DNA of 64,000 nt from the NCBI RefSeq assembly GCF_028502605.1, contig NC_079232.1, forward strand, positions 5,518,001 through 5,582,000, in the 5' to 3' direction. This stretch comes from Trichoderma breve. Lineage: Eukaryota > Ascomycota > Sordariomycetes > Hypocreales > Hypocreaceae. The notes beneath the pieces are model-generated. The model was not told the origin of the DNA and made no database searches. It saw only the letters and a list, made by a program, of their open reading frames with translations. Made by a program: the position numbers and the translations under genes. The first letter of the stretch is position 1. Every line of letters begins with the position of its first letter. Positions 36,595 through 56,017 of this stretch are shown piece after piece.

Positions 36595-39452
36595 TCAGTT
36601 AGCTCTTCCCTTGTCCACTTCGCCGGTGTTTTGGCCGCCCTTTGGAGACATTCCATATGCTTCATTCCGGCACTCTTCCTGTAAATTTTCAACGCCATGA
36701 GATGTCGTAGAAGGGCGAGTAGGAGTGTCCACCGCAGCAGTTGGATATCGTTGCATCAATGGATACATGGTGAACACATCGGAATATGGTGCGGTGCTAT
36801 AGTACGACTGTCCGAACGAGTTGTACATAAGAGGACCACCCTGTGGTGTCATGGAGTGAGCCATCAATGATTGGATCGGGTGAAATCCATAAGGCGAATA
36901 GGTATAAGGCTGAATGATTGGGTAGAAGCAAGATGCCGCTGACTCAATACTATACGCCGGAGAAGGCTCTGCAGTAGTCTTTATCGGAGACTTGGTTGGA
37001 GTTTCCAAAGTTTTTTGATCGTCATTTGTCGCGCTGTTCCCAAATTCGACGTCCTTGGAATCGCGGAGATGCTCATCTAACTTGCCTCGGTAACTGTCGT
37101 TGGAACAAAATTCTGGTTCGTGCGTGCTTTGGATAGCTTTTGGTCCTCTTTCTTCCTCTTTGACTTCGGCATTGTCAGTCAAATTCTCCTGTTGTATTTC
37201 ATCTCTGCCCTTGGTGGTGCTGCGCTCTTCTACTTCTTCAAGCTCGGTCTCCTTGACATAGCTAATAACCGGTAGCTGGCTAGTGGAGCTATACTTCGGA
37301 TTTATTGGGAGGCTAACAAAGGCAGCAGAGCTCTCATCGCTGATGGTAGGTCTGGTAATGGTGGAGTGGGTATAGCGTCCAGCATTTGTTTGAGGAAGAG
37401 GATGAGACCCATCTGCCTTTGTAGGAGAGACTTCATTATCCTCCTCGTTGTCGAGCACGGTTGGAAGATATGTTGCTGATAACCCTGCAGTTGGAGGAAT
37501 GAAACTGTCAGCAGTCATAATACGGTTGCCACGACCATGGTGATTGCCCCCTTTGTTCCCATGCCAAGTAGATGGAGCGCCAACGAATGCTCCTCTTTGA
37601 GAGCCATTAGTGGCGTAAGAAGGCCCATTGAACATTCTCGTACGCTTCCTCTCAACTTTGATAATATGGCCATCAATAGGCTTGCGGTGCTATTAGAAGC
37701 GTTAGCGATAGCCGCATCAATGTGTAGGACCTCTGCCAAAAGACAGAGCCAACTTACATAATTCATGATAGCGTTGTCAATAGAATCGGGTCGGACAAAC
37801 TCTACAAATCCAAAACATGTTGTAGTAGCTAAGTTCAATCGTTAGTCCGACTCATGAGCAAGCGTATAAAGGAACACTTACTCCTGTCACCAACTTGAGG
37901 AATTTCTTTTGTCGCAACCTCAACACAGAGCACTTTGCCGCACTGGCTTGCTAGAGACTTCAGAATATCCGCCGTCATATTCAAGGGTAAATTGCCAAAA
38001 TATGCCGATCGACGGTCTTTCTCGTACTGTGCATAGCTCTGCTGGTCGCTTTTCTTGTGCTGCTGCCGAGTCTCAGCCTTGGGGTCGTATGCGTCAACGC
38101 GAAAAACCGGGTGGCCCTCAAAGGCCTATAATCGCGGAATCAGATGTTAGCTCGATTCTGATACAAATTAAGCTGGAAGAAGGAGGCGATAACCAGTCAG
38201 CATACATTACATACCTTTGTTACAGATCGCGAAGAGTCATAGCGTTTGTAATGAACGACAATAGCAGGCGGGAAATTCTCTGCCTTGTGGCCGTTGAGAT
38301 CCAGAGGATATGCCTTGGCTATTGGTCCTAGGGCACCAAGAAGATCTATAGCTTCTTGTCTAGTCGTTTCAGCTCCAGAGAGCTTATAAACAAGAAAGCA
38401 TGCTATGGAGGACTTTGGTTAGTTTGCCATCTTGAAACGACCGAAGAGGAGTGGTATAGCTACAATGAGCGGTGGCTTTTTCGACGCGACAAGGGCGACC
38501 GAGTATGACAGAGCCGTTTCCATGTTTTCCGGCGTTCTCGGCATCGGCATCACACTGTAATCGAGTTAGCAAATAACATGTGCTTGTTAAATCAGACGTA
38601 CTATCTCTGCTTACTGTAAATTGACAAAAAGCAAATGGCATCTGGCGACTATCTCGACGAATCTTGACGAAAACGGTACCAAACTGCGAGAAGTACTTGG
38701 TAACTTCGATTTCCAGCTTTCGATCGTCAAAGGCTTGGGTTAGACTTGAAAGTGTTGGTTAGCAAACGCTTGAGGATGGGACTTTGGTGATATAACAGCA
38801 ACTTACTTGGCGACAAATACGCAGGCTGACGATGGATAAATATTCTGAGCATCAACTTGAAGAGGGTCACGAGGAACCAGAGACCAGTTGCCGACGTCTG
38901 TTTGCAAAGCCTGTTCTTCGCTCCCGTTTGAGGCCTCCTCAGTGCTACGCTCATCTCCTTTCGAGGACGAGACTCTACACTCCGCTCCTGATACTGGTCG
39001 ATCGGTAAATACATCATCATTGTTGGTATCTCCAACTTGAAAGGCAAGTGAGCTAGACAAACAAGTTTAGTATACAGCATGAGAAATCAAGGGCACAAGG
39101 CTGAGGGTAGAGGCATGAATACCTTTCATGCTCGGCACACTTGGCACTCTGGGCAATCAAGTTGCCGGACGAGGCAGGTCGCTTAGGACTTTGACACTGT
39201 TAGAACCCGAGGAATCCTTTTCTCTGAAGACAATACAAGCTTGGGAATGACTGACGTGTTATCCTGTTTTGGCAAGCTACGTGGGCCTTTGCAATTTTAG
39301 CGACCGAGAAGAAGGAAGCGAGAAGATATAGCATGCTACTTACCAGGGTTGAAAACATTCTCTTGATCAGACGAGAGCTGGCGGAGGATGTCGAAGGACG
39401 ACGCTTTCATGAGTGTCATCTTCGGATGGCGAAGAGAAGAATGCGCTGGCAT
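36595..39452 (-). CDS. Three-RRM RNA-binding protein
   Basis: RNA-binding protein of at least 712 aa. Exons (minus): 39196..39123, 39052..38807, 38744..38615, 38554..38464, 38402..38215, 38125..37882, 37828..37758, 37689..36595; phases close at every junction. RRM1: SSACVFVANLTQAFDDRKLE and FGTVFVKIRRD with MPFAFCQFT as RNP1-like. RRM2: HSCFLVYKLSGAETTRQEAI and PPAIVVHYKRY. RRM3: RRSAYFGNLPLNMTADILK and CFGFVEFVRPDSIDNAIMNY (RNP1). The C-terminal third is low-complexity and Tyr/Pro/Ser-rich (YPIIQPYTYSPYGFHP). A first exon 39452..39344 (MPAHSSLRHPKMTLMKASSF) has a perfect GTAAGT donor but leaves the frame off by one against 39196, so the N-terminus is unresolved. The target RNAs are unknown. 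Confidence 0.85.
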
Positions 39453-40831
39453 CTTTGCCTTTCTGAAAACATGTGTCAATGTTTGTGATTAAGGGAAAGA
39501 AGTAGAAGTTGGCAGTGAAGAGAGAAGAAATAATGTAATGTTAACAGATAAAAGAACAGCAGTGGAGAGATGGAAGGGAGGTGGAAGAGAAGTAAATTGT
39601 GGGAAAAGAGAGGAAAGTAAAGCGAGAGCGCAAAGAAGAAAGGGGAAAAGAAGGTAGAAGTAGAAAAAGAGAAGATGGATAGAGGCCGCGTGTATGTACG
39701 CAGGTTCAACCTACTTGCTTTCAAAAAGAGGGACTAGTAAAAGAAACTCTGCCTAATGCAATGAAAACTGGCCCAAAATCGGCCGCGATGGAGTTCAATG
39801 GACAAAACGCGACTGGGGTTCCCTCCAAGAAAGAGAGAAGAGTAAATATAGGGTAACGACTGAGAAACAGATGATTCTGAGAGCAGTTTTGGACTGCTTT
39901 GTAGTGGTGGAAGACTTGCAAATCCGGATGAGGTTTGGCCTTGAAAATGGCGGTTGATAGTGGACGATTTGAAAGTTGAGGATTGGAAGTGAAGTGGAGA
40001 GGGGGGGTAAACATCAAATGGATTGGAGATGGACTGATTGGTTGCCCGGAAACCCAATCACAGCAGTGCCAGCAGATGGCAAGAAATTGACAGTAAAACA
40101 GCCTACAGTTGGCACCACTTTTGGTAGCAGCCGTCAACTCCCTGAGGTTAGGGGAAAGGCCAAGTAAAGGCCAATAGCATTAGTGATAATTGTCCAAAGC
40201 AATATGCATCAAAATTGACTTGAAAATTGTAGAGTTGTTATCGTAGAATTCAAAACTCATCTAATGGAGATTGGAGATATAATCATGAAGGGACTCCAGC
40301 GTACGCAATCTTTCAAAGAATTTTGGGAGGCTATCTCGGCTTTTTACCAACTTTAGGGCATGTGAGAATCCTCATATCAAGAAGACAGCTGTTGAAACAG
40401 CTTTACCCATGGCATATCACTCATTTTATGAACACAGAAATTTCAAGACTACTTTTATGAAATATCACATTAATTAGAATAGTAATCATACCACAATGAG
40501 TTGCGTCGGCTACCATTCGAAACACTCTACCGAAACCCCCACAATTGAGTCCATTCAAGCTTCCTGTCAATCAGCAAATCGTGCACAAACTAATCGATTT
40601 GTATGCTACCTCATCAAGATATTCTAATATATTCCACTCTCCTACTGTAATTCTTGAGTACTACTAATACATTTACCGGTCCAGTTCCATTGTACTTTAC
40701 ATTTTCAAGTCTTTCTGCGTCAGCATCGTTACACGTCAAATGCCTGTGATACAGCATATAGTATCACATCCATTGATAGCATGGATTTATCTCGTTTGTT
40801 CTACCACCCAGAAACCGAGAAACCTAAGCAG
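39453..40831. other. Intergenic
   Basis: Upstream of the RRM gene: a purine/pyrimidine-biased leader (GAAGAGAAG-rich at 39485-39680 on the plus strand, so a CT-rich leader for the minus-strand gene), then about 1 kb without supported frames. Confidence 0.45.
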
Positions 40832-41936
40832 CTACTTGGACGCAGGCTTCCATCCAGCTCGTCTCGCCTGCTCCTTGTCGATAGCTTCCTTCTCTTCCAG
40901 ATATGCTTCCAAAGTTGTGGGAGATGTTGTGCCCCAAACTCTCCACGCGTCCGATTCGAATGTGACCGCATTGACCTGTCTGGAGAGCACCACATATTCC
41001 ACCTTGTCTTGAATCTTAACGCTGCCAGGGATCGTCTCTCCTGTAGACGCATCATACCGAGACACCTGCTGGGTGGATGAAATGGCAACAACGGCTTGTT
41101 CTGTCATGAGGTTCTTGTCGTACATGTTGATCTGGTGGATCTGATGTGCTATTCGCTTGGGATAGAAGAGCGAGCTGTTGTACTTGGTAACCTTGAAGTG
41201 AACCCGCTCTCGAGGATTCCGGCGGTCTATTGCCGCAATGAGCTTCTTTGCAAAGTCATTGACGCAAATTCTTTCGAGTGTCGCTTTGTCTCCCGCAGCA
41301 AAAGCCTCTAGCACTTCCTGATATAGAGCCTTGGCCGTAGGCGCAATCTTGCCGCGGCGGGCTTTCCACTGAGGTCGAGTCGTCCAATTTGGCATGGATT
41401 TCAATTTGAAGTTGAGCAAAGAAACGGTTTCAATCACCCAATGTCTTAGCCTGCTCCATTGATATTGCGCGAAATCTGCAGGGTTTAGCGGCAGACGAAA
41501 TAACGGGAGGGTTACAAATGTGCCTAGCGAGAGAGAGTTTTGTGTTAGCCAGAGTGCATTCAGCTACATCGCCTGTTATGGTAAAGGTATAAGACGCCAA
41601 TTTCATCATGAGACATCATGAAAGCAAGGAGACAGATGGTTAGAGAATTGAGGACATGCGCGAACCTGGAAACAGCGGACCCCCTCCATCCTTGAAGTAC
41701 TCTGCGTTTGCCATTTTCTGCAACTGCGAGATGCTCTGTTCTTTTGTCATCCTGCTTGAGCCAGCACGAGCCGCACGATCCATCTCTCTCATTGTTCTGC
41801 TCCTTGATGGCTGTGTCGCATATTGTCGAAGCATCTGCGCGGCCAATGGCCTTGCGGCGCATCTTGGAAGATTATTCGCAGTGCCATGGCGAAGTGCCGG
41901 TGCCGCGATTGAGCGCATTGCGGAGGCGGGAGACAT
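40832..41936 (-). CDS. Mitochondrial MBA1/mL45-type (Tim44-like) protein
   Basis: 320 aa. Model: complement(join(40832..41523,41666..41936)), with a 142-bp intron. N-terminal mitochondrial targeting sequence: MSPASAMRSIAAPALRHGTA with many Arg and no acidic residues up to MLRQYATQPSR. The C-terminal domain (FKLKSMPNWTTRPQWKARRG; LYQEVLEAFAAGDKATLERI; YEVVLSRQV-type strands; DAWRVWGTTSPTTLEAYL) fits the Tim44-like fold shared by MBA1 and large-subunit protein mL45. These hold mitoribosomes at the inner membrane near OXA1. Divergent from CIA30, another mitochondrial gene, with under 600 bp between starts. Confidence 0.82.
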
Positions 41937-42526
41937 GATCTTGATTAAATCGTACAAATGAGACAGTGGAAGAGACTTCTTCTGCCTTTTTTCAAAGGAA
42001 TTATGCCCGATTCTCAGCATCCAAACATCGTCATCATCCCACCAAGACAATCTCTAAAAAGCCGGCCCAGGTGTTGAACTTCTGCGGTTGGATGAATTTG
42101 GTGGATTAATAATAATCCAGATGCCGACACACCCTGTGCGGGGTGTTAGAATGGTCAGGCTTCTCGCTAAGAGCCAAGATTCACACCACCTGCCACGTGC
42201 GAATCTCTAGCCTCTTCATGTTTGGTCTTTCTCTCAACACCAAACGGCTGCACATCGTCTCCCGCAATCAGATGTAAGGCTGAGAGATTTGTCTGCTGTG
42301 TAATTCACAACGCAGAATCTCTCATGTTACTCAACTTCAGGTGAGCCGATTGGCTCGTCCGCTGTTACTGTCGTCAATACGCTTGTTTGCCCATCATGAG
42401 AGCCACGCAGCCTCTTCTTGCAAAGAGCTTCCTTGCGCGGAGCTTTGACGAGCTCAAGAGGCGCTCCAGTATAGGTAACTAGCATCACGCCCTCTGATTG
42501 CATATACATGCCTTCGGATTCCTCAA
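41937..42526. promoter_or_regulatory. Divergent promoter of two mitochondrial-protein genes
   Basis: 590 bp between the MBA1/mL45-like gene and CIA30, read in opposite directions. No specific motif identified. Confidence 0.45.
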
Positions 42527-43243
42527 ATGCTCTCGAAGTCGCTAACATTCGCATCATCAGCCTGGAACCTCGACGCCGTCAAGGGTCCCTCAGGCCCCCG
42601 CGAGCTCTACGACTTCCACAGCGCCGATTCCGTGAGCAACTGCATTGTCATGTCCGACAAATTGATCGGCGGCTCCTCCACCAGCAGTCTCGACTTCATC
42701 CATTCTTCGACTTCCTCCTCCTCACCGTCTCACGCACGCTTCTACGGCCACATCTCGACCTCACTCCCACCAGATCGCTTGGCAATTCAGCGGACAGGCT
42801 ATGCGGCGTTTCGGACACCAGACCAGCCGCCCACAGTCTTCGGTCGCTCTGTTTGGGATATAGACCCTTACATATATCTCGCATTGCGGATCAAATCCGA
42901 TGGCAGAGCATATTACGTCAACGTACAGACAGAGAGTGTGGAGCCAACAGACCTCCATCAGCATCGGCTATTCACAAAGCGCCCTGGGCAATGGGAAACG
43001 ATTCTCATTCGGTGGAATGACTTTGTGCGCACAAACCATGGCTTCGTCGTTGAGCCACAAACAGAGCTTTTAAGACAAAGAGTCTATAGTGTAGGCATCG
43101 GGCTGACGGATCGCGTGGAAGGGCCCTTTGAGCTCTGCATCGAGAGAGTGTGGGCAACAAATGGAGCTGAAGAGACACGCACGACGAAAGAAACACAGGA
43201 GGGGGAACTGAAGAACAGGAAGGGCGAAAAGATTCAGTGGTGA
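42527..43243 (+). CDS. cia30: Complex I intermediate-associated protein 30 (NDUFAF1/CIA30)
   Basis: Assembly factor for the membrane arm of respiratory complex I, 238 aa, single exon. CIA30 domain features in order: RELYDFHSADSVSNCIVMSD at about 27, LGGSSTSSLDF-like (LIGGSSTSSLDF), ARFYGHIS, GYAAFRTPDQPPTVFGRSVW, IYLALRIKSDGRAYYVNVQT and RPGQWETILIRWNDFVRTN. The end, IERVWATNGAE, is followed by a basic tail. CIA30 is a standard syntenic neighbour of fungal MAT loci, usually beyond APC5; here it is directly next to the MAT region. Confidence 0.93.
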   Translation: MLSKSLTFASSAWNLDAVKGPSGPRELYDFHSADSVSNCIVMSDKLIGGSSTSSLDFIHSSTSSSSPSHARFYGHISTSLPPDRLAIQRTGYAAFRTPDQPPTVFGRSVWDIDPYIYLALRIKSDGRAYYVNVQTESVEPTDLHQHRLFTKRPGQWETILIRWNDFVRTNHGFVVEPQTELLRQRVYSVGIGLTDRVEGPFELCIERVWATNGAEETRTTKETQEGELKNRKGEKIQW

Positions 43244-43924
43244 AATCGCAGCAGTAGCATGTTGGACTAATTCCATGCAAATGATTGATCCACCATGTAT
43301 GAGCGAGAAGATTATCCGCTTCGTTGGCATACGAAACTACGAAGCTAGATGATATGATTGAGCAAGGCGACATTGTTCAACTTCGCCCACAATATATCTA
43401 GTTAACTGTGATCAATCTGAATGGCTTCATTCAACCAAGGTGGTCCAAGCTAAACAAGCTATTGTGGACCAAAACCTATTCACTTTTGGCAGGCTCTCTT
43501 GTTTACAGGAGACTTACTCATTCCCTTTCAAATACAGGATTCCCGATCTTGTTCCAGCAACGTTTTTTCAAGCAAGCAGATGTCCATGTTTCAACAGAGT
43601 ATTCTCGATCGAGCAAGTTGTTATATACTTGTTTAGACAATGTTATTTTGGTCAGTCAATGTGGCCTCGGCTGAATGATCTCGTTGTCCAAAGGCAACGA
43701 TCCAGCTTCGCTGAAGTACTCACGACCACCACCGCCTGTGAACTTCCACTATAGCTGACCGCAATCAACGGGCACGTAAACACTTTCGTAGAAATCAGAC
43801 TCATAGTCTCATATGCATTCGACTATATGACGCATCCATCAAAAGTGTTTGAGTTGCGTTAGGTATCATTACATGCAATATCATATCGAAACCAGTCCCA
43901 GGGCTTGCTACCTTCACTCTCCTC
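43244..43924. other. Intergenic; CIA30-side border of the MAT region
   Basis: No supported gene. If the MAT-APC5 block is inverted, one breakpoint should lie here. Confidence 0.4.
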
Positions 43925-44294
43925 CTAGTAAGCCTGCTTGCCATTCCCAAATAATTTCAGCTTCCTGTTTTCTCCGAAACCACAGTACAAGCTTATGGCA
44001 GTGTTGTCAAGTAAACGTGGCCAATGCTCCCCCTTCTTCGAATACACAACGTAATGGAATGCGGGCACCGTGCATGATATAACTTGGTCACCTAATTCAA
44101 AAGGTGCAATAGAATCCATTGTGTGGGTTATATTGGTTGTTAGGGGGTAAGCCGGCATCTTCTAAATATAAGCAAGATGTCGGGACATAAACTGCATGCG
44201 GAAACATACCTTTCTCGCCTTCGTTCTCCTGGTAGTCCGGCATCTTATCAATATCCCAAGGATTGCCGACATCGATCGTATCGCTCTCAGTCAT
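43925..44294 (-). CDS. Small unassigned gene in the MAT region (83 aa)
   Basis: Model: complement(join(43925..44091,44210..44294)). Exon 1 reads MTESDTIDVGNPWDIDKMPD, YQENEGEK; donor GTATGT at 44209. Two acceptors are possible. The one at 44092 (GAATTAG) gives GDQVISCTVPAFHYVVYSKK, EHWPRLLDNTAISLYCGFGE and a stop at 43925 (83 aa). The one at 44162 gives a shorter, 50-codon product ending NGFYCTF. The first uses far more of the open sequence and has branch-like CTAAC/ATAAC upstream. Acidic N-terminus, basic C-terminus, no signal peptide or known domain. It lies between CIA30 and the next unassigned gene, on the same strand. Confidence 0.5.
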
Positions 44295-44708
44295 CCTGAA
44301 ATATCACATTTGCGGCATCTCAATCTGATATTGTTGTGCGGCAGTAGAAGATGCGTAAGTGTAATTGTAAAGCCGCGGTGTGTCTGGATATACGAACTGC
44401 AGCGGGAGGTGATTCAGTACATTGAGATCGTCGACTAAATGAGACTTGACCCCTAGGACTGGCACTCGTTTCTCTTCGTAGTGTGTACCTAGAAGCTCTT
44501 TGGCTGCTTGAAACGGGTCTGCTTCTATTACTTTAATGAAGTTTGGCCTTTTTGTTATTGAAAAGATGAAAAGAGAGCCAGGCGAGTTCTGATGCCACTG
44601 CTACCAGCTTCTTTTTCTTTTTATGTTATTCTACTACTATACTAGTAACAGTGTGACCATTTGCCCAAGAAATTGGTTCAGCGAAAATATGAGGTTACAG
44701 CAAGATAA
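44295..44708. other. Intergenic between the two unassigned MAT-region genes
   Basis: About 0.4 kb, no gene seen; promoter of the 83-aa gene and 3' end of the 249-aa gene. Confidence 0.4.
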
Positions 44709-45505
44709 TTATGAATGCTGCGAGAAAAAGGTATCCCAGTCTCCGTCAGAGCCCTGTGTAGTGTTGGGAGTTACATGAGCCCAGTTCTGCTGCCAAGCAC
44801 TCAGAAACATTGGAGTGTCTTGGGGTAATCCGAATTCAGTGTTAGGTATGGAAATCGAGGCGTTGCCTACAGCTGTGGGAAATAATTCATTGCTCAAAGG
44901 CCACTCAGTAGTTTCAGGAGCAAAACTATTTTGTGAAAGCTGTTGGTGATTAGGCATATTCAATCTTTGGCCGTGTTGGTAAAAATGAGATTGAGGAGCA
45001 AGTGTCGTTTCTTCGAATTGAATACTGGCTTGAGCTTGCGATTCAGATGGTGAAACAATGGTTGCTTCAGTGTTAAAGAGAAGATGCTCCTGGAGCGGTT
45101 GCTGGATTTGACCCGTCGAGTATGGTCGTAATGCGCTCTCCTCTTGTGATTGGTAGAGTATTGATGCTGCTCCTTGTGTATCTCTAAACTCTGTGGGAAC
45201 TTCGTGCACGTTTTGGTGGTGATATTCGATCTCAGAAACTAAAAACTGTCAGATCCAGTTACCGAACTTGGAAGAGGAGCCATACCGTTGTCATTATATT
45301 CGTAGACAAAAGATGCGCAATGTTTCCGGATATCATCCTCATTATGGCAGTGACGCAGGGTATAGGTGATTGCCTCGGCGCCGTTATCCATCACATATGA
45401 TAGAGAAGTGCTGTCCCCATCATGTCCGTTAACGGCCCATTGGCCATCGGGCCGTGGCTCTAGAGCTGTCAAAGCGGAAATTGGTGGAATTTTTGGAGAT
45501 CTCAT
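44709..45505 (-). CDS. Unassigned MAT-region gene (249 aa), candidate MAT1-2 secondary gene
   Basis: Model: complement(join(44709..45238,45286..45505)), intron 47 bp with donor GTATGG and acceptor TTTTAG, phase closing across NDN|VSEIEYHHQ. Start MRSPKIPPISALTALEPRPD. The N-terminal part (ITYTLRHCHNEDDIRKHCAS, FVYEYNDN) looks folded. The rest is Gln/Ser/Thr-rich and acidic (QIQQPLQEHLLFNTEA; SQAQASIQFEETTLA; QGSDGDWDTFFSQHS), like an activation region. No HMG box and no alpha box. It is divergent from MAT1-2-1 across 1.3 kb. In Fusarium and Metarhizium a second gene (MAT1-2-3, renamed MAT1-2-9) accompanies MAT1-2-1; this could be its counterpart, but I cannot confirm homology. Confidence 0.6.
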
Positions 45506-46821
45506 GATGGTATCGGTCGACTTGGTATGGTAATTGGCAATGCTAATTGGCAATGCTAATGGAGAAAAGAGGTTTTCAGGTAACGGGATCGGAAATCCTT
45601 CAGTGTTTATTTGAAGATTTAGGAGGATGTAAGAGGCGGGAGTATCAACTCAGGAGAGCGGGCAGCTGAAGTATTTCTCCTCAAGAGTGTTTGCCTTGCC
45701 TAAAATGTGTTTGTCTAGTAGTAAAAGTGAAAAGAAAGATCGAGAGCAGAAACTGAAGTCCATGGTTTCGCCTCACTTTTCACTCACTTGCATTTCAAGT
45801 ACTGTGCAAGTACTGTGAATCTTTTCCTGAGGGGGGAGGCCCACGCCACCATTTATATACGTATTCCATGCGGATATCCGCTAAGCACGTCCGTTGTTTG
45901 TGTTGGTTCCTTGCCGGATTCGCCATTAGAATCTCCCAATATTCAAATTCATGTGCATATCATATAAAATGTAGCGTAGAGAAAAGTCATATTTCTGATC
46001 CAGGTCCTCTACATATGCTTTGGATTGCAGTCTCAGTAAAATTCTGGAAAAAAGCTCAGAAGTCCAATATAAGGGGGAAAGCCATTGTCGGCTGTTGGAA
46101 TTTTTATTCTGGGCTATTATTTCTTGCCTCAGAAGTATTCGCAACCGTCTGCCAATCTGCATGAGTATTGTGGTTAATCCATATGCCCAGTATAGTAAAT
46201 AAAAAGGCCAGCATAGAGTTTCTTCATTTTGCCATAGAACTAAATCCTCCTGCCGAGCGTAGTTGACTCTGCTTTCACAACTTGTATACACCATGCAGGA
46301 GGGTGCCATATAAATCTACGGCTGGGGTACCGGTAAAATTTTGGAGAAAAACGAGAAGTGGGACGGCTGAAGTTTAGCTCCAACACCTTTGTTTGTTAGC
46401 ATATTGTTGGTCGAGGGAAAGCCAATTCCTTCCGCCACAGAAGTTGGAGAATGGTCCCAGAGGGAGTGAAAACTGAAGTGGAGGGCGCACTGACCTAGCA
46501 CTAAATAAAGGGGGGCTGGTGGGTATTCAGATTAACTCACTTGGCAGCTCTCAATAGCCACTAATAAGTGAACTACCATGCAGATTCCAGGCTCACTTGT
46601 AGCTCACTATCACCCATAGCTTTTCAATTCTTCGTGGTACTGAACTTTGGAAATGTTTTATTTCTTCAATATTTCCCAATTATCACATCAAATCTATCAA
46701 CTCTGAATCTACGACTACTCTTTTTTTCACGATACCTCTTCAAGCGCCTTTCGGATTTAGAGATTGGCGCCCCATCATCACCCGCGAATAATCATTCTGA
46801 GCCAGCCATCTCTACGTCATC
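45506..46821. promoter_or_regulatory. Divergent intergenic region upstream of MAT1-2-1
   Basis: 1.3 kb between MAT1-2-1 and the 249-aa gene. A duplicated 12-mer (ATTGGCAATGCT, at about 45534 and 45546) lies just upstream of the 249-aa gene start. A plus-strand frame at 46568-46876 overlaps the MAT1-2-1 start and is unsupported. Confidence 0.45.
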
Positions 46822-47657
46822 ATGGATATGTCACAGCAAATATCTTCTCCGAATCATGAAATTGCAGTTTATCTAGCCGCCATCTGGGATGGACTGAAAG
46901 ACCAGATAACTCCCTTCCTCAGTGTCCTTTACATCGATGACACTATTTACCGAATGCTGGACAGCCATGGGAGGCGCTATATCGCCAGGAAATTCATGTG
47001 AGTCCAATAACAACAGCGAAGATGTTCGCAAGTATTAACCTTACTACAGGGAGCATACGAGAGAAGCCGTAATGTATTGTCGTGATGGTAACAGAGGAGA
47101 CCGTCATTATCTCGGCCCACCGCGTTATTTTATTGCCAATGGCGGCGTGATACATTCTCCTGATGGCCTTGAGCCAATCTGGGCGATGAACGATGGCTTG
47201 AATACTCGCCTTGAAAGCGTCGCAGCTTGCCAACCTACGGTGCCACTTAAGCCAACCAAGATTCCACGCCCTCCCAATGCATACATTTTGTACCGCAAGG
47301 ATCGGCACAATCTGGTTAAAGCTGCCAATCCTGGTATTACCAACAACGAAATCTGTAAGCTTTCCTCCATCTTTAGTGAGACTCCTCAGCTAATTACTTT
47401 TTACTACAGCTCAAATCTTAGGACGAGCTTGGAATCAAGAATCAAGAGACGTACGGCAAAAATATAAGCAGATGTCAGAAGAAATCAAAATCGCGCTACT
47501 GGAAAAGCATCCAGATTATCAGTACAAGCCTCGGAAATCGTCAGAGAAACGCCGTCGCACTCGCCGCAGCCAACAAGCGCATGCTATATTGGTCGATGCC
47601 AATCTTGCTGCTCCCGACGATGACGCAGTTGAAGGCCATTCTGTTACCTCGGTTTAG
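46822..47657 (+). CDS. MAT1-2-1: MAT1-2-1 mating-type HMG-box protein
   Basis: Master regulator of MAT1-2 identity, a nuclear HMG-box (MATA_HMG) DNA-binding protein, 242 aa. Model: join(46822..46997,47050..47354,47410..47657), phases closing. N-terminus: MDMSQQISSPNHEIAVYLAA, YIDDTIYRMLDSHGRRYIAR. HMG box about residues 127-195: KIPRPPNAYILYRKDRHNLV, NPGITNNEIS, QILGRAWNQESRDVRQKYKQ, EEIKIALLEKHPDYQYKPRK, then a basic run EKRRRTRRSQ. The second intron interrupts the box at the Ser codon after NNEI, the classic conserved position in ascomycete MAT HMG genes. Its 3' end faces APN2. No MAT1-1 alpha-box gene is present, so the strain is MAT1-2 and presumably heterothallic. Confidence 0.96.
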
Positions 47658-48709
47658 TGCCTCACACAATTAGATGCTGAGAAGATTCTGTGCGAACGCC
47701 TTCAGCTATGGGCTATCATTCTTGCCCTATGGTATGCGTGCAATAACTATAAATCACAAAGCTTGTAATCTGACGAGTTTCAGGATAAATTTGCAACTAT
47801 GTTGGATATCCTAGGCGATGATGTGCGCGAAGCAAGTCGATTCCCTCGTTCTCACAATAGCTGGACCTTGTACTGCCAGGGTTGGTTGAGAGAATTTGCC
47901 AAATGTTAGCCGGCAATAGGTGCAGCAGTGCTTTGTAAGTGTGCATTTACATCAAATTACATTAGTATCTACATGTGCTAATGTATTGTTACAAACAGCA
48001 ACTATCATCTTAACGAAGCAGAAGAGCGAGATACCGCATGAGAAGAAATCTTTCTTATAATTTGGTTGAACGGGAAAGACCCAATCACAAACGGAAATAT
48101 CTAGTCTACAAGTGGAAGGTTAGGACACTCTAAGCGAACAAAAGGGAAGGGAGGCAAACTACGGGCATCACTGCATTTGAGACAGATTGATCACCACAAA
48201 GTCACGCATCCAGCTGGAGTACTTAGTAGTCTTAGCTCTACTTGAGATTCATTGCTGTTAATTTGCCATATAGAGCTGTTAGGTAGCAGGACAACAGACA
48301 CCCAGATTCCACGATTCCTTCATCTCTATTCTACAAGATCATACACAGCAGTCTCCCAAAGCATCGCGTTCCAAATGTACTTCTTCAGGCATCGACATTA
48401 GATCTCCCAGGCCTACTCCTTCAGCAAATGCCAATACCAGATCCATTAGTTGCCTTCTTCTGACATAGACACTAAAGCTTTATACTTCTACTCTCTTCAC
48501 ATGAACGCCGCCGAACATCCCGTAGATTTTCGTAAAGGAATATTACGGATGCCACTTGGCATTTCAGGACACCATGAATACGAGTCCAATGCCGCCAAAA
48601 CAGTTCCAGTGGCAAGCAGACTTCTGTGCTCTCATTGGAAAGAAAAATGCCGCGGACTCTGCAGCCCAGTACGCAGATGCATCCAAGCTCAAATGCAACC
48701 GGCGCTCTG
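47658..48709. other. Intergenic between MAT1-2-1 and APN2, with a coding-like remnant
   Basis: Directly after the MAT1-2-1 stop, one frame reads LTQLDAEKILCERLQLWAII (about 47665-47730). After a possible short intron, 47784-47909 reads DKFATMLDILGDDVREASRF, PRSHNSWTLYCQGWLREFAK, then a stop. The pieces do not join cleanly in phase. They may be a relic of an idiomorph gene or an unspliced extension. The rest (47910-48709) shows nothing convincing. Confidence 0.35.
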
Positions 48710-51377
48710 CTACGATGGTGATCCGTTCCAGTCGCTACTCCAAATGAAAGTACCGCAACGCCACTCAGAGCCTCGTTCTTTTTCGCCAGAGGGGCCTAGT
48801 GGCCGGGCGCAGATATAGAATGACCGTCCTAGAACAAGCGTCAGCCACAAGCCTGTCTGAGCACGTGGTGAATATGATGGCGTCCAGGCAAACAAGAAGG
48901 GTGAGGGCGTGTCTCCATCATTGGATCTAGCAACCAACAACATCCGCTAAGAGAAGAGGTGTGGTGGTGAGAGCGAACGAGCCAACAACTGAAAGTCGCA
49001 AAAGCAAAAAGCAAAAGCATAAAGCATAAAAATAACTCGCCAAATGCTAGAGCCATGTTCGGAATAGTCATTGGACTCGGCTGAAAACATGGAGGTGGAG
49101 GAGGGGAAGAAGGAGGAAAAGCAGAAGGAAAAAGGAAAAGGGAAAGGAAACGGGAGAAAAAAAAAAAAAAAAAAAAGGACGTACCACAATTCACACCTGG
49201 TCTCTTCGTGGTGAGGCTGATACAGGGCTCATTATGCTCGCATCGGGGAAGCATCCGTCTTCCCAGAAGTTTCGACCAGGATTCCTTTGCTTGAATCGGG
49301 TCAAACACTCTGGCAGCAGCTTCCATCGACTGGGTGGAGGCTTCAGGAGCTGACTTGGCTGGAAACGCTGAATCCGGCAACCCTTCCGGCCAATTACCGC
49401 CGCTTGTCTCTAGTGGCAGATTGGCAACCGGGGAAGCTAGCTGGGCCTGGTGTGACGACAGGGGCTCAGAGGGCTGCGTTGTTGTTTGCTCGCCAGAAGA
49501 TGGGGCGTTGGCATTGGCATTGGCGCTGGCGCTGGCGCTGGTACTTGTGGTCGTGTCGCTGTCCTTTCTCCCTAGCATCCGGTTAGCGGGCGAGGGCTGA
49601 AAAAAGCCCTGTAGAGTTTTTTGGCCTTTGATGCCAGCGCGAGAGCTTCTGGCATTCTTCCTTTCCGTGGCGCCCAGATTAGTGTTAGCACCAGTGTCAA
49701 GCACTTTGTTGCGCTTCGGAGAGGGTGGTTGAGCACGATCGACGGACCCCGCAGCACGTTTTGTGGATTGCGCCTCTGGCCCCGACCCAGTTGGCGATTT
49801 CGAATCTGCGGAGTGGCTAGCGCCGCTCAGTCCGAGCCTGTGATGAGCGTGGCTCGTCGTCGTCTTTGTCTGGCTGCCAGTCTGCTCCAAGCGTGCCAAG
49901 TCGGCCACTGGCTCTCCTTCTGGGGTAGACTCTGTGGCGCTGGAAGGCGCCAGTGACGAAGAATAGCTCGACGGCTTAGCGCCAGCTTTCTTCGTAAACA
50001 TGTCCCGGATGCTCTGTCGCCGGTCGAACTCAGGAATCAGCTTGGCTGATAAAGGCAAGACGTCCTTGAGATGCCATTCACGGAGGCGTCGACCGTCCCT
50101 GTCAACCATGCCAGCTGGGTTGACAAGGTTCAGCAACGGCACCTTTTCGGTGCCAGTCGTAACGACATCAGCTAGCGTAGCAAAAACTGGGCAGTGATCA
50201 GATCCCATTAGGCCCTCCTGGATGTTGGCCTCTGTGAACCAGTCTTTCAGCCCATTGCTGCAAAGCACGTAGTCGATGCGGCTGCCGTTGTTGGCCGGCC
50301 GTGTGTTTCGTTTCGTATCCCAGCATGTGTTCATGCCCTCTCGTGCGGGGTGGAATTCTCTGCATAGATCCCACAGCGTAGGCTGCTCCCGCCCTTCATC
50401 CCGATCTCCTTGCACCGTGCCTCCGTAGACCAGATGATTGAAGAGGCGGCGTGAAGGTAGGTTCATCCACTCCTCTATGCTCAGACCTTCTTTTCGAAGG
50501 TTCTCGACAACGTTGGTGGAGTCGGGCACGGAGCGACTCACGTTCAAGTCCCCCACCAAAACCACCTCCTTGCCCTCAGCGACCAAGTTTCGCACCCTAG
50601 CATCGAGGGCCTGCAGAAACTCCATGCGAAATTCCACCCTTGACTCATCGCGGTTAGCCGGGCTGTAAACACCCAAGAGCACAAAGGCAGGAAATTCGAG
50701 AATGACGCATCTTCCTTCGGAGTCCAGTAGCAGTTCGTCGATGTTTCCTGGGAGCTGCCCTGGTCTTGGGTAGCCCCCAATCTGTTGGTCTTTGGGGAGG
50801 TTTCGGAACTGTGTCGATGATTTGGGAGGACAGAGCACACCCAATATGCCTTCTTCAGCCCTAATAGGTGCACAGGTGGCATTTCGTGTGTATATGGCAA
50901 CGCCAGAGTACCCTTTGAAGCGTCATGTTAACTGCTGCCTGCTGCTCCTGTGGACACCACGACGGCGTTGACTTAAATGCACCTACCTTTCTTGTGCCTT
51001 GGTAGACTGAAGTATACGTCCCACCCAGGAACCAGAACCATATCATCCGTCAAGTCTTTCCGCTGAATCTTGGTCTCTTGCATCACAACAATGTCGGCTT
51101 CGAGAATATCGAACATCGCCTAGGTGGGAGATGACGTATTAGTAGCGAATCAACTCTGGTCAGGATACCTTACGAACCTGAAAAGTACGCTTTTCTCTCC
51201 ATGGCTGATACCCAAATGGATTTCTGCAATTGTATAAGTCTATAGATTCGCTGCAGGCGTGCGAGAAATGGCGAGACAGACCTTATGCCGTTGACTTGAA
51301 ATTTGTCAGCGTCGTGGTTATTGTCAACGGATATTTTCGAAGTTCTTACCGTTCCACGTCGTAATACGAAAGCCCAT
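48710..51377 (-). CDS. apn2: AP endonuclease 2 (DNA lyase)
   Basis: Class II AP endonuclease for base-excision repair in the nucleus, 688 aa. Model: complement(join(48710..48828,49185..50912,50987..51119,51178..51223,51282..51294,51350..51377)), all phases closing. Exons 1-2 give MGFRITTWNVNGIR, with VNGIR in a 13-nt exon. Catalytic blocks: DIVVMQETKIQRKDL, SLPRHKKGYSGVAIYTR, VVLVGDLNVSRSV, GSRIDYVLCS and MGSDHCPV (the His of the DH pair). A PIP-box-like QKTLQGFF lies in the middle of the disordered linker. The C-terminal GRF zinc finger is CEHNEPC, CGRSFYICARPLG, WRCGTFIWSSDW; an intron splits it. That last intron is long (356 bp) and carries a 22-A run on the plus strand. Confidence 0.95.
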
Positions 51378-51856
51378 CTTACCTAGAACTATTCCTTCAC
51401 TCTTGAACACTATCGCAATCTGGCCACTCTTCCACCGCGTGTCGCAACGAGAACATCCCGCTTCACTGGGCCGAATGGGATGAGGAGAATCGATGACGGG
51501 AGAATGTGGTTGAGCGGGAGGAGATCCGTGCGCATTAAACGACTGATGGCGCTCAGAAACAATCACATTGAGAGGATTGGCAGTTATAACAGAGTCGCAG
51601 AGGCTCACATGCGCCGCCAAGGCACTACATAACAATTCATAGAGAAGACAGGCGGATGAAGCTGCCCCACGCATCGCGAGAGCTTCCCAGCTTCTGTGCG
51701 CGAATACGTCACGAGATCACGTGATGGTATCACATTGATGGTGGCCTGGAGATTGAGGCATCCATGGCATGGTCTAGCCGAGCTCCATCGAATATGACCT
51801 GATCTCACAATCTGCACTTTATAGACTCAAACATCGACGAATTCGAATCGCCCACG
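51378..51856. promoter_or_regulatory. Divergent promoter APN2/COX13
   Basis: 479 bp between the two starts. A palindromic ATCACGTGAT lies near 51714-51723 (CACGTG core), a plausible bHLH-type site. Confidence 0.5.
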
Positions 51857-52596
51857 ATGTTTGCCGCCCGACAGGTTACCCGCAACGCCCCGCGCTTCGC
51901 TGCGCAGCTGCGCGCTCCCATGCAGCGCCGCTTTGCCAGCACCGCCGAGAACGAGTTCATCGCTGAGCGCCAGCACATCAAGGAACACGCCAAGGGCACC
52001 ACTGGTGAGTGTTCAAGGTCCCGGTCGCACCAATTGGGTTTGAGGGAAGCTTCTAACTGTGTGTCTAGAGCTCTGGAAGAAGATTTCCATCTAGTACGTT
52101 CACCGCCGGCTCTCGATTGAGCGAATTTCTACGCCGCCCAGCGATGAATGAGGGGAAAAGCTCTTTGAATGCGCCGATACGTTTGGATCAAGACAAAGAA
52201 GGCTGACAAGGTCAAAGCGCCGTCGTTCCTGCGCTGGCTATCGCCGGTGCCAATGCTTACTGGCTGTGGACTGAGCACTGGGAGCACTGGAGCCATCTTC
52301 CTCCTCTGCCCGAGCGCACCGAGTACCCCTACCAGAACATCCGCACCAAGAACTACCAGTGGGGTGATGGTGACAAGGTGAGTCGTCGTCTTGCCGTAAA
52401 TTCTGTGATCTGAATGCTAACTAGTATCACAGACTATCTTGTAAGTTCTTTTGTTGCTCGTCCTCAAGAGCAAGGTTTTACTGCGATCGCCGTCCCACCT
52501 TTGGCAAAATACTATGACGAAATGCGTGTGCTAACCATGTTGGAAAAAAGCTGGAACGAGAACGTCAACTACCACAACAAGGACAAGACCAAATAA
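51857..52596 (+). CDS. cox13: Cytochrome c oxidase subunit VIa
   Basis: Inner-membrane subunit of respiratory complex IV, 128 aa. Model: join(51857..52004,52069..52093,52218..52377,52433..52440,52551..52596); phases close. Presequence MFAARQVTRNAPRFAAQLRA (Arg-rich, amphipathic), then HIKEHAKGTTELWKKISIY, the membrane helix AVVPALAIAGANAYWLW, and the strongly conserved TEHWEHWSHLPPLPERTEYP and YQNIRTKNYQWGDGDKTIFW. Two exons are tiny: 25 nt (ELWKKISIY part) and 8 nt (Thr-Ile-Phe start). The last introns use GCTAACC branches and the AAG acceptor at 52550. A standard MAT-flanking gene, here divergent from APN2. Confidence 0.94.
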
Positions 52597-53436
52597 GCTG
52601 GAATAATGGCTCCCGGAGGAAAACTGCTAGTATTTGTAGATTACCCTTTTTGGGACCGCTCTGTATATTTCCCTTGGAGCTTCAATCGATTACACTGTGG
52701 CTGAGGAGAGAGAGTTCCATGTTGTGTTTGTGACATGGCGACTGAGCTTGAACCTTTTTTCAATGTACATTATTCCCCTGTGTCCCTACCTAGTACTAAC
52801 CTACTGCGTACGTCCAACGCTTCTGAATGGCCTCCATTTATACTCCAGCCCCGTAGCAGAAAGCCAGCTCCCACCTGCTATTGCTACATTGTTCTACTGA
52901 TCACATACTTTTACCGCCGCTAGGTATATTTGTAATTGAGATTTTATAATGCAGAAGGAGTTGTACAATAGTTGGCCATGATTCTCCGAGAAAATCCCGG
53001 CATCATGCACGAAATGTTGCTTCCTCCCGATCTGGTATGTACTGCCACCCACGATCTGAGAAAGGTCATATCTGGATTACGTAAGCTGTTTTTGAACCTC
53101 CAAGATACCTCAGTAGCGCTTTACTCCCTCCAACGCGTCCAGCTACCTGGTACCTTATTCAAGGTACAACTAATTCTTCATATCACGTCAAGTATACTTG
53201 GCTTCCCAAACATGAAAGCGTCAATAAGAAATTGACCAGAGGCGCTGTTTGATCTATTTTTCTCTGATTTGCTCTCTTGCATCGTTCACGCAAAGTCTCA
53301 ACGCTAAGCTGCCAGCTAGCTGTAATATGGAGAAGCATTGAGCTTTCCGGGCTGGGCTTTACAATCACGATTCCACCTGCTGGTAGTCGTGGGATTCCCA
53401 ATATTCTATTCCAGACCGGGTGTCTCAACATTCACC
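52597..53436. other. Intergenic
   Basis: 3' flank of COX13 and promoter of APC5. Short frames only; no gene supported. Confidence 0.45.
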
Positions 53437-56017
53437 ATGTCGCGATATCTCACGCCGGCCAAGGTTGGCCTTCTTGTCCTCATTGAGCTTTACGTTGAAG
53501 AGGCGATCCCCAGCGATGCAGTCGTGCCTGTCCTGTCATTCATTGCGTCTCATATGATAGGCTACGATCCCAACGGCCCTTCTACAAGCCAAGCGACGAG
53601 ATGGACAAAGGCTGAACGCGCCGTCAGTCTAGTGGTCTCGATTAAAGACTTTGAAAAGCTTCTCAGCAGCTATCCATTGTTGATGGGCTTACCCGGGAAG
53701 AGACTATGGGACCAATTTCTCAATAATCTGTGGGGGATTGATTCGCTTCACGCACTTGAAGATTTCTTCGCAAATCTTTCGTCAATATTTCCCAAATCAA
53801 AGGAGGAGCTTCGAAAAGAAGGTCTGGACCCTGAAGAGCCTGAGCTGGGCGTCAAGCTCTCCCACAACTCTCCTCTTGGTGCTTTCGTCCGCAGAGCTCG
53901 CCTTGAATACCAACGTCTTCAGTTTCATGACTGTGCCGAGCTATGGAAGGACTTTGTTCGCTATCGACAGCCGACATCTCACTACCAGAAACGGAAGAAC
54001 CCGGACTTTAGCAGATACAGCTTCGACAATGTGTTGCTGCGTGGCGAGCTGGAGGATTGGGATGTCGACAAGGTTGCGGGCTTGGCATCAGTAGCATATG
54101 GCGACATGTTGGCGGGTGATCGCACCGGGACACTTCCCGTCAGCTTAGATGACGTTGAAAATCTACTAGACTTTCAAATTGAGCAGATGCAGAGTAAGGC
54201 TGCCAACAACATGGAGACCAATTCTCCTGATCTATCGCCATATGTTTTTGCTGACGGTTTAATACGCAGAGTACGGTAACAGGATACCTTTGGAGATTCG
54301 GCACCAGTTTCACGACCTCCTTAACGATACCTTCCTGATCCCAAGTCTTACACACTATATCACGTAAGCCTGTGCTCTGTCTATTTGCTCTTTGTCTTCT
54401 GATGGCGTGCTAAAATACGTGTTCAGCTTCCTTGATGCTTGGAGAGCTGGAGATTATCCAACTGCATTCGAATTCCTGCACCGGTATTTCGACTACACAA
54501 TGCAGCATCGTGATCGTCTCTTTTACCAGTACGCTCTGATGAATTTGGCTGTTTTGCAAGCCGACTTTGGCTGTTATAAGGAAGCCATGACGGCGATGCT
54601 TGAGACAGTAACCGTGGCGAGGGAAAACCGCGATATGACATGCCTCAACTTCTCCTTAAATTGGTTATTTCACTTTGGACAGGCACATCCAGAGCTCATC
54701 CGTGGTCTACAATCAGATAACCTGCTCGGTACGGGAAAAGAAACGCTGGCCTTCCTCCGAGTCAAGGCCAGAGAATCTGGGATGTGGACTCTCTGGAGTT
54801 CTGTGCTGCTAAGCGAGGCAAAACTCTGCCTTATCAACGGCGACAGCATCGCGACCGCCCTTGAACACATGGTAAGAAGCTCGCAGATTATCGTGGAAAA
54901 GAATATGAAAGGCATGTTTGGGGCGCACCTCAGCTTGTACTCGTCGCTCTGGGGTAGGCTCGGCCTAGGCCATCTAGCCGCCGTCTCGTGTGAGATCTTT
55001 TTACGTTGTCACACCTACCATTCCATGTTCGATGACGAGCTCAAGATACTCAGCCGGTTTTGTCTAGCGCTTCTCGACCAGGGGAAATATCGCGAGGCCA
55101 TGGAAGTTCTCGACAACGTCGACGAAAACTCGTTGCGCTCATGGAAGCCTAGCCAGTATTGGTATAAATACAGGGGGATTATACGACTCAAAAGAGACTT
55201 ACACCACAATAACTTGGATGGAGCAGAGCAGCTCTTGGATCAGTTTCTCCAATCCAAGGGCGACGACTTCGAACCCGACCTGGCCTTTGTGATTGACACC
55301 GCACATATAGACTACTTGACACGCCGTGGAGACCTATCATCAGCCTCTGAAAAAGTAGACAAGATGATATCGGAGCTTCAAGATGAGAATAGGGATATAT
55401 GCCTGCGTGTCAAGGCACTTCTTGTCAAAGTTTCGCTTCTAGATCGATGTGGACGGCCTCAGCGTGCATTTTCGGTTGCTCTCCGAGCGGCAAACTTGTG
55501 TTTACGGGCGAGGCTGATGTCTCTGCTCTGGGCGTCAATCGGCGCAATAGCTAATATACTGGTATCGATGGGGGAATTCGAAGCCGCCACACAGCTTCTC
55601 ACTGCTGCATTACCGCGCAGTCTAGAATGCGAATCTCCAGCCCTCGCAGCGAAACTATATGCATACCTCGCTGATGCTAATATGGGACTAGCAGGCCAGT
55701 CCCAAGACGAAACCAGAGCTGGTGAAGATGGAGAGACCCCAAAACGGGACCGGGAAAGCAGGGGAAGTGAAGCAACGAAAGCAGCTATCCAACGACGCGA
55801 TGAATATTTAAATAGGGCGGCGATGGCGGTCCAAAGGGCATTTGACGAGTACTCCAGCATTGAAGATATCAGCAGCCAATGTGAGATGATGGCGAAGAAG
55901 GCCGTAATCATGAAAGTATTAGGGGATATGGCCTTGGCTGCAGATTACGCCGCAGCATATGTTGGGCTGAAGAAGAAGGCTGAGTCACTGAGTTTACAGA
56001 GAGGGGAAACTGGATAA
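53437..56017 (+). CDS. apc5: Anaphase-promoting complex subunit 5
   Basis: TPR-containing scaffold subunit of the APC/C ubiquitin ligase, 813 aa. Model: join(53437..54193,54270..54363,54427..56017), phases closing. Start MSRYLTPAKVGLLVLIELYV (ATG context TTCACCATGTCG, and the canonical APC5 N-terminus). The Apc5 domain with TPR helices covers FLDAWRAGDYPTAFEFLHRY, MQHRDRLFYQYALMNLAVLQ, YKEAMTAMLETVTVARENRD and LNFSLNWLFHF. Further TPR-like helices follow to VILKVL-type repeats, with an acidic/basic linker (DETRAGEDGETPKRDRES) near residue 720. It is a standard MAT-flanking gene; here its 3' end faces the 3' end of SLA2, with 287 bp between the stops. Confidence 0.93.

What the first reader, a model, noticed from the sequence alone, without database searches (positions are those of the whole stretch)
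44709..45505. Undescribed 249-aa gene divergent from MAT1-2-1
An intact two-exon frame with closing phase, acidic Q/S/T-rich tail (DWDTFF near the end) and no HMG or alpha box lies on the side of MAT1-2-1 away from APN2. That is where MAT1-2-specific secondary genes sit in Fusarium. It may be a MAT1-2-9 (MAT1-2-3) counterpart or a new idiomorph gene with a transcription-activation-like tail.
Basis: partly seen in the sequence, partly recalled or inferred. Interest (0 to 1): 0.75.

Follow-up and report, generated by a model that had tools for sequence, protein, structure and literature searches.

The report
MAT1-2-9 mating-type gene of Trichoderma breve
The gene is real and sits in the mating-type locus of the mould Trichoderma breve, but it is the local copy of a mating-type gene already reported in related fungi (MAT1-2-3, now called MAT1-2-9), whose job is still unknown.

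Summary
The two-exon, 249-aa gene is real: it equals the annotated protein T069G_01640 of Trichoderma breve letter for letter, and 0 of 200 dinucleotide shuffles gave a model that long. It is not undescribed. Its T. virens ortholog (73%) is TRIVIDRAFT_221797, which a 2017 paper names MAT1-2-3 (later renamed MAT1-2-9, recalled). My profile reaches three Clonostachys proteins, a genus with published mat1-2-9. No named Fusarium protein came up; that link rests on print (28% over 55 aa). Two parts are conserved in both genera: an N-terminal module (predicted alpha-beta-beta-beta-alpha, moderate confidence) and an acidic-aromatic C-terminal tip (DWDxFF). Best guess: a MAT1-2 accessory protein without a DNA-binding domain. 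A spliced, unfused T. reesei-type sequence (P0012) suggests that the published T. reesei MAT1-1-1/MAT1-2-3 fusion is a gene-model artefact. In passing: seven 80-195-bp pieces of this idiomorph and one alpha-box piece lie scattered over four contigs; of four control regions three gave nothing and one gave only what look like diverged gene copies.

The parts
45286..45505 (-). MAT1-2-9 (MAT1-2-3) exon 1, start codon at 45503-45505; encodes the conserved N-terminal module (residues 1-73)
   Evidence: all 26 invariant columns of A1 and 27 of 33 of A2 lie in residues 1-72, though truncated rows in both alignments rule out invariant columns further on in part
45239..45285 (-). 47-nt intron, GT..AG
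   Evidence: same junction joined in P0012 and in the annotated relatives
44709..45238 (-). MAT1-2-9 exon 2, Q/N/S/T-rich tail ending in GDWDTFFSQHS and stop
   Evidence: C-terminal tip shared with Clonostachys
44100..44534 (-). remnant of the 3' part of MAT1-1-1, broken by one in-frame stop (44304-44306) and holding an intron-like GT..AG stretch (about 44162-44209, by eye)
   Evidence: tblastn of five relatives' tails, 57-71% identity, E 1e-42 to 2e-63; open frames; that these tails are MAT1-1-1 rests on PMC5608430
45506..46821 (.). shared intergenic region between the divergent start codons of MAT1-2-9 and MAT1-2-1 (1,316 bp)
46822..47657 (+). MAT1-2-1, HMG-box gene; likely exons 46822-46997, 47050-47354, 47410-47657
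   Evidence: PF00505 matches at window 47261-47359 and 47412-47522, exon search, Pfam
42479..43243 (+). CIA30 gene (open frame), conserved flank of the Trichoderma MAT locus
   Evidence: PF08547, E 4.7e-40; PMC8672877 names apn2 and cia30 as the flanks
49185..50922 (-). APN2-type exonuclease/endonuclease/phosphatase frame, the other flank
   Evidence: PF03372, E 4.7e-12; the name APN2 is inferred from its place

Best explanation
This is the Trichoderma breve ortholog of MAT1-2-9 (published in Trichoderma as MAT1-2-3), the secondary gene of the MAT1-2 idiomorph, transcribed divergently from MAT1-2-1 (identity: about 0.95). How it most likely works (inferred, about 0.4): it binds no DNA itself but is an accessory factor for the MAT1-2-1 programme. 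The conserved N-terminal module (alpha-beta-beta-beta-alpha in the prediction) would dock on a partner, and the long, presumably disordered Q/N/S/T-rich tail with its conserved acidic-aromatic tip (DWDxFF) would recruit the transcription machinery. It would be expressed in MAT1-2 cells only. Shown: gene model, locus, orthology, two conserved modules, absence of a known DNA-binding domain. Inferred: partner, activation function, MAT1-2-only expression.
For: Orthologs: P0003 TRIVIDRAFT_221797 (73%, E 3e-113) is the protein ID that PMC5608430 calls MAT1-2-3; P0006 is from T. spinulosum, the species of that study. Position between CIA30 and MAT1-2-1. A profile of Trichoderma sequences finds a Clonostachys protein at E 7e-14, and a second profile two more; PMC13401452 says that the five mat genes, mat1-2-9 among them, were also found in a list of species that includes C. 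chloroleuca and C. solani, two of the three. Conservation is two-peaked: mean pairwise identity of ten Trichoderma proteins 0.69-0.78 for residues 1-73 and 0.41-0.56 after that; Trichoderma against three Clonostachys proteins 0.68 (1-20), 0.34 (21-62), 0.27 (63-73), 0.06-0.23 (74-235), 0.32 for the last 14 residues. AF2 of exon 1: mean pLDDT 71.6, elements H9-15 E22-29 E32-39 E44-51 H56-62. Tail composition. P0012 suggests transcription and splicing in T. reesei.
Against: No named Fusarium protein was returned by either profile search, so the link to the founding MAT1-2-3 rests on a published 28% over 55 aa. Deletion of MAT1-2-3 in F. graminearum had no effect on sexual reproduction, and the C. 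spinulosa work found it not key to homothallism, which argues against an important activator role. A 9aaTAD pattern count is not informative. The five AF2 models of exon 1 range from 52.0 to 71.6 in mean pLDDT and the whole-protein model is poor, 41.5. One unnamed relative (P0034) looks frame-shifted near residue 61 (my reading).
Confidence: 0.75

Rival explanations
1. A Hypocreaceae/Bionectriaceae MAT1-2 gene that only shares the place, not the ancestry, of the Fusarium gene; the name MAT1-2-3/-9 would then be given by position.
For: No named Fusarium row among the 35 and 17 hits of the two profile searches; the published similarity is short (28% over 55 aa); in F. [quoted passage not shown]
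Against: The published 55-aa similarity is about as long as the conserved N-terminal module found here (whether it is the same stretch was not seen); position beside MAT1-2-1 and lack of domains agree; Clonostachys proteins bridge part of the distance, and the Clonostachys gene is called an apparent homologue of Fusarium mat1-2-9 in print.
Confidence: 0.15
2. The true product is a fusion of MAT1-2-3 with the MAT1-1-1 C-terminus, as published for T. reesei QM6a, and the standalone stop in T. breve is derived.
For: Five annotated models are fused (P0005, P0007, P0009, P0015, P0023); PMC5608430 reports the fusion from the QM6a sequence.
Against: The five fused models leave MAT1-2-9 at four different points and all drop the conserved DWDxFF end; the models P0011 and P0013 of related species are standalone; P0012, whose first 72 residues equal those of the T. 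reesei RUT C-30 model P0023, is spliced at the usual intron and ends in GDWDLFFSQP; in this window the MAT1-1-1 remnant begins about 175 bp after the MAT1-2-9 stop and has its own in-frame stop. No T. reesei DNA was in hand.
Confidence: 0.05
3. A dispensable relic: transcribed by virtue of its place in the idiomorph but without a selected function.
For: No phenotype of the deletion in F. graminearum, not key to C. spinulosa homothallism, fast divergence after residue 73, possible frame-shifted copy P0034.
Against: Open frame kept in more than ten Trichoderma species' entries and in Clonostachys with two separately conserved ends; PMC13401452 found no premature stop or frameshift in the mat genes of homothallic C. 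rosea strains and no significant relaxed selection on mat1-2-9 there.
Confidence: 0.2

Closest known systems
MAT1-2-3 of Trichoderma virens Gv29-8 (JGI 221797) and of T. spinulosum (Chromocrea spinulosa)
   Same: 73% and 50% identity over 99% of the length; beside MAT1-2-1, standalone in T. virens
   Different: The T. spinulosum entry P0006 (264 aa) seems to read through the intron; other species
mat1-2-9 of Clonostachys
   Same: N-terminal module and DW-x-FF-like tip; same idiomorph with mat1-2-1 according to PMC13401452
   Different: 29-31% identity over the alignment (P0033, P0036, P0037); Clonostachys has a longer, proline-rich N-terminus and a G/N-rich C-terminus; I did not see the locus of these proteins
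Fusarium MAT1-2-3 = MAT1-2-9 (renaming recalled)
   Same: MAT1-2 idiomorph gene next to MAT1-2-1 without DNA-binding motif or conserved domain
   Different: not reached by my searches; published similarity to the T. reesei protein only 28% over 55 aa
MAT1-1-1 (alpha-box) 3' part
   Same: lies directly downstream as a broken remnant and is fused in several relatives' gene models
   Different: not part of this gene; no alpha box in the 249-aa protein

Membership tests
MAT1-2-9 (syn. MAT1-2-3) | lies in the MAT1-2 locus next to MAT1-2-1 between the conserved flanks | tested here: met
   flanks per PMC8672877
MAT1-2-9 (syn. MAT1-2-3) | orthologous to a protein already named MAT1-2-3 | tested here: met
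   P0003 = TRIVIDRAFT_221797, 73% over 99%, named in PMC5608430
MAT1-2-9 (syn. MAT1-2-3) | sequence similarity to the Fusarium type protein | tested here: inconclusive
   0 named Fusarium proteins among 35 and 17 hits; no Fusarium sequence was in hand for a direct comparison; 28% over 55 aa in print
MAT1-2-9 (syn. MAT1-2-3) | no DNA-binding or other known domain | tested here: met
   Pfam: 0 families for P0001; two stray matches, each to one of 19 relatives; one stray match in the fused model P0005
MAT1-2-9 (syn. MAT1-2-3) | absent from MAT1-1 strains | not testable with these tools
   the genome tool holds no relatives of this genome; PMC5608430 says it is not present in strain Cs27, which carries MAT1-1 only
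MAT1-2-9 (syn. MAT1-2-3) | expressed, with rise during sexual development | not testable with these tools
   only an indirect sign of transcription and splicing in T. reesei (P0012); Fusarium expression in PMC6568001 (passages)
HMG-box MAT proteins (MAT1-2-1, MAT1-1-3) | HMG box PF00505 | tested here: not met
   genome scan finds HMG matches in MAT1-2-1 but none in 44709-45505; hmmscan of P0001
alpha-box MAT1-1-1 | alpha box PF04769 | tested here: not met
   the one match in the genome at E<=0.001 is on contig C7; hmmscan of P0001
9aaTAD-type activation domain | short acidic-aromatic motif that activates transcription | tested here: inconclusive
   4 pattern hits (pattern recalled), one at the DWDTFF end, against 2.2 expected by shuffling; activity needs an experiment

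The most novel reading that the evidence does not exclude
MAT1-2-9 is an idiomorph-specific co-activator made of a small docking module whose fold I could not match to a solved one and a disordered activation tail, working with MAT1-2-1. The MAT1-2 idiomorph of Trichoderma is also unusually prone to shedding short pieces of itself, as well as pieces of the opposite idiomorph, into other chromosomes, perhaps because idiomorph DNA has no homologous partner for break repair in meiosis.
Probability: 0.2. Interest if true: 0.6.

Novelty: new member of a known kind. Interest (0 to 1): 0.36.

Why it matters
MAT1-2-9 is an accessory mating-type gene without a known function or domain. Its two separately conserved ends, shared by two hypocrealean genera, give concrete handles for a functional test. 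If the T. reesei fusion is a gene-model artefact, the starting point of a published model of how the Chromocrea spinulosa MAT locus arose falls away. Scattered MAT fragments can also disturb PCR mating-type tests, as a paper on Cercospora beticola supposes for its multiple bands.

Tried and rejected
1. Chance frame or non-coding artefact: rejected (100% annotated match; 0 of 200 shuffles).

2. HMG/alpha-box or other known domain: none that holds. The profile against PDB sequences gave 3 rows, all DnaJ, at E 1.2 to 1.3, taken as noise.

4. Reaching Fusarium MAT1-2-9: two profile searches gave no named Fusarium protein; only the 7997 candidates sharing most words were scored.

5. dN/dS: not possible, since I had no DNA of relatives; protein conservation was used instead. 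Codon-position mismatches between the gene and two ectopic fragments (2/1/0 and 3/3/10 at positions 1/2/3) are too few to use.

6. MAT1-1-2 family PF17043 in the own genome: no match, but the control rang in none of 14 genomes either, so this says nothing.

7. A fifth place in the protein search of the own genome, C1:3325365 (31%, E 0.22, two stops inside), was taken as chance and not counted.

8. Junctions of the ectopic fragments: I saw no target duplication or common edge by eye; no formal test.

Full report
The window comes from Trichoderma breve. The spliced 249-aa protein of the finding is 100% identical to T069G_01640 [Trichoderma breve] (P0001), which lies on a contig of 7,587,385 bases, the length of contig C1 of the own genome. 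A script that looks for the longest start-to-stop model with at most one GT..AG intron finds 249 aa in 43300-46800 (minus strand). In 200 dinucleotide shuffles the median was 82, the maximum 181, and none reached 249.

Surroundings: CIA30 (PF08547) at 42479-43243 (+); a broken 3' part of MAT1-1-1 at 44100-44534 (-); the gene itself; a 1,316-bp intergenic region; MAT1-2-1 with its HMG box at 46822-47657 (+); and an exonuclease/endonuclease/phosphatase frame that fits APN2 at 49185-50922 (-). PMC8672877 (passages read) names apn2 and cia30 as the flanks of the Trichoderma MAT loci. In the passages I saw, it mentions only mat1-2-1 for the MAT1-2 strains P1, Gv29-8 and QM6a, although a T. atroviride protein with a P1 locus tag and a Gv29-8 protein are among my hits (P0008, P0003).

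Identity. The first protein search gave 10 hits, among them TRIVIDRAFT_221797 of T. virens Gv29-8 (73%) and a T. spinulosum protein (50%). [quoted passage not shown] virens strain Gv29-8 (protein ID 221797'. It places MAT1-2-3 between a MAT1-1-1 fragment and MAT1-2-1 in C. spinulosa (T. spinulosum), says that it is not present in strain Cs27, which carries MAT1-1 only, and gives 28% over 55 aa between the T. reesei protein and F. graminearum MAT1-2-3. So the gene is known in the genus. That MAT1-2-3 was renamed MAT1-2-9 is recalled; two papers of 2026 use MAT1-2-9 for Fusarium and Clonostachys (passages read). One paper in the held library holds both 'Trichoderma' and 'MAT1-2-9' (search listing only), and its title is on Phyllosticta.

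Reach of the family. A profile of nine Trichoderma rows (A2) gave 35 hits at E<=1, the most distant named one being a Clonostachys byssicola protein at E 7e-14. A profile of 11 rows led by that protein (A3) gave 17 hits, adding C. chloroleuca, C. solani and one unnamed row like them. PMC13401452 (passages) says that the five mat genes, mat1-2-9 among them, were also found in a list of species that includes C. chloroleuca and C. solani. It reports neither premature stops nor frameshifts in homothallic C. rosea strains, and no significant relaxation of selection on mat1-2-9 there. I did not see which protein accessions it used, so the equation is likely but not proven. No named Fusarium protein was found in either search. 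MAT1-2-3 has also been reported in Metarhizium acridum by synteny and similarity (PMC4869207, passages).

Anatomy. Conservation has two peaks. In ten Trichoderma proteins mean pairwise identity is 0.69-0.78 over residues 1-73 and 0.41-0.56 after that. Between Trichoderma and three Clonostachys proteins it is 0.68 for residues 1-20, 0.34 for 21-62, 0.27 for 63-73, 0.06-0.23 from 74 to 235, and 0.32 for the last 14. The N-terminal signature is PPISAL.ALEPRPGG.W ... Y.L..C.TEE.IR..C..F.Y. The C-terminal tip is GDWDxFF or near it (GEWDAFF, GDWDSLL, GDWDLFF; in Clonostachys GDWDQLF, GDWNQFF, GNWTQFF). AlphaFold gave a poor model of the whole (mean pLDDT 41.5). Exon 1 alone, with 24 sequences, gave 71.6 (other models 52.0-61.4), with H9-15, E22-29, E32-39, E44-51, H56-62. 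Fold searches gave nothing convincing. No Pfam family fits.

Mechanism. There is no known DNA-binding domain and an acidic, Q/N/S/T-rich, presumably disordered tail with a conserved acidic-aromatic end. With the location beside MAT1-2-1, this makes an accessory co-factor of the MAT1-2 programme the most likely role (about 0.4 for this step). Against a strong role stand the published absence of an effect of deletion in F. graminearum (PMC3691137, passage) and the finding that the gene is not key to homothallism in C. spinulosa. A plain 9aaTAD pattern scan is not informative (4 hits, 2.2 expected).

The T. reesei 'fusion'. PMC5608430 takes a MAT1-1-1/MAT1-2-3 fusion in T. reesei QM6a as the start of its model. 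Five database models are fused in this way (P0005, P0007, P0009, P0015, P0023), but they leave MAT1-2-9 at four different points (P0005 and P0009 at the same one), and all lose the conserved DWDxFF end. P0012 (source 'lgn', 4 member sequences, 9 contigs, longest 2,386 bases) has the same first 72 residues as the T. reesei RUT C-30 model P0023, is joined across the usual intron and ends in GDWDLFFSQP. Eight other rows from lgn, jgi or ena with an undisturbed Trichoderma exon 1 (P0010, P0020, P0022, P0024, P0025, P0026, P0028, P0030) appear to read on into the intron, among them P0028 with the same T. reesei exon 1. P0034 and P0035 were left out of this count because their exon 1 is disturbed, and P0038 because it is Clonostachys-like. 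The simplest reading is that P0012 comes from RNA-derived contigs; what 'lgn' stands for is not stated by the tool, and I had no T. reesei DNA. In that case the T. reesei gene is transcribed, spliced and unfused. In T. breve the remnant begins about 175 bp after the MAT1-2-9 stop and has an in-frame stop of its own. That these tails are MAT1-1-1 rests on PMC5608430; I had no full MAT1-1-1 protein to compare. A MAT1-1-1 3' remnant beside MAT1-2-9 thus appears in T. breve, in the species with fused models and (in print) in T. spinulosum, which suggests that the misaligned exchange is older than T. reesei.

Scattered MAT pieces. DNA of 43400-46560 and 46560-48700 (5.3 kb together) has seven further places in the own genome: C2:6603188 (173 bp, 92%), C1:6723953 (87 bp, 97%), C1:3669239 (110 bp, 85%), C4:3069443 (80 bp, 91%), C4:1227123 (84 bp, 77%), C7:2310332 (195 bp, 87%) and C2:6791695 (111 bp, 74%). 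Four of the seven lie in MAT1-2-9 (one of these across its start), one just beyond the MAT1-1-1 remnant, and two in MAT1-2-1 (one across its start). In addition the one alpha-box match of this MAT1-2 genome at E<=0.001 is a fragment on C7:1063664-1063834. Controls of 5.3 kb each gave: 38100-43400, no further place; 48700-54000, none; 54000-59300, none; 10000-15300, four further places, three of them on C8 between 779561 and 782149 and one on C2, at 63-88% identity, which look like diverged gene copies and not isolated fragments, a judgement of mine. If pieces fell evenly, seven of seven in one fifth of the searched DNA would have a chance of about 1e-5 (my arithmetic), but that leaves out the four places of the fourth control, and the controls all lie in this window and are not a random sample. 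An unnamed relative (P0035, 20 contigs) has the C1:3669239 piece with similar surroundings (76% over 92 aa), which argues against an assembly fault for that piece. [quoted passage not shown] Five held-library searches on MAT fragments or Trichoderma MAT genes showed no such report for Trichoderma among the rows listed (20 of 20, 11 of 11, 20 of 55, 20 of 222, 20 of 620); the rest of those papers were not seen.

Interest is modest for the gene itself and somewhat raised by the doubt about the T. reesei fusion and by the scattered pieces.

Noticed in passing
own genome C1:3669239, C1:6723953, C2:6603188, C2:6791695, C4:1227123, C4:3069443, C7:2310332 (L016-L020, L022, L023; L012 and L013 are the two C1 places again): Seven isolated 80-195-bp fragments of the MAT1-2 idiomorph (MAT1-2-9, MAT1-2-1, remnant flank) lie scattered over four contigs. 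Of four 5.3-kb control regions three gave no further place and one gave four that look like diverged gene copies.
   Followed up: partly
L009:1474-1755 (C7:1063664-1063834): The one alpha-box match (E<=0.001) of this MAT1-2 genome is a fragment on another contig (PF04769 positions 75-131); by my reading MAT1-1-1-like text goes on in other frames, so it looks like a broken piece.
   Followed up: partly
window 44100-44534 (-): Remnant of the 3' part of MAT1-1-1 with one in-frame stop inside the MAT1-2 locus, as reported next to MAT1-2-3 in T. reesei and T. spinulosum.
   Followed up: yes
P0005, P0007, P0009, P0015, P0023 against P0012: Annotated MAT1-2-9/MAT1-1-1 fusion proteins in several Trichoderma species look like gene-model artefacts; a spliced unfused T. 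reesei-type sequence exists.
   Followed up: partly
P0034: An unnamed relative seems frame-shifted near residue 61 of MAT1-2-9; it could be a broken copy or a sequencing error.
   Followed up: no
P0006: The T. spinulosum database entry (264 aa) seems to keep the intron in frame, which adds residues that the other aligned full-length orthologs lack.
   Followed up: no
window 40835-41563 (-): A Tim44-like domain gene (PF04280) lies beyond CIA30 on the same side of the MAT locus.
   Followed up: no
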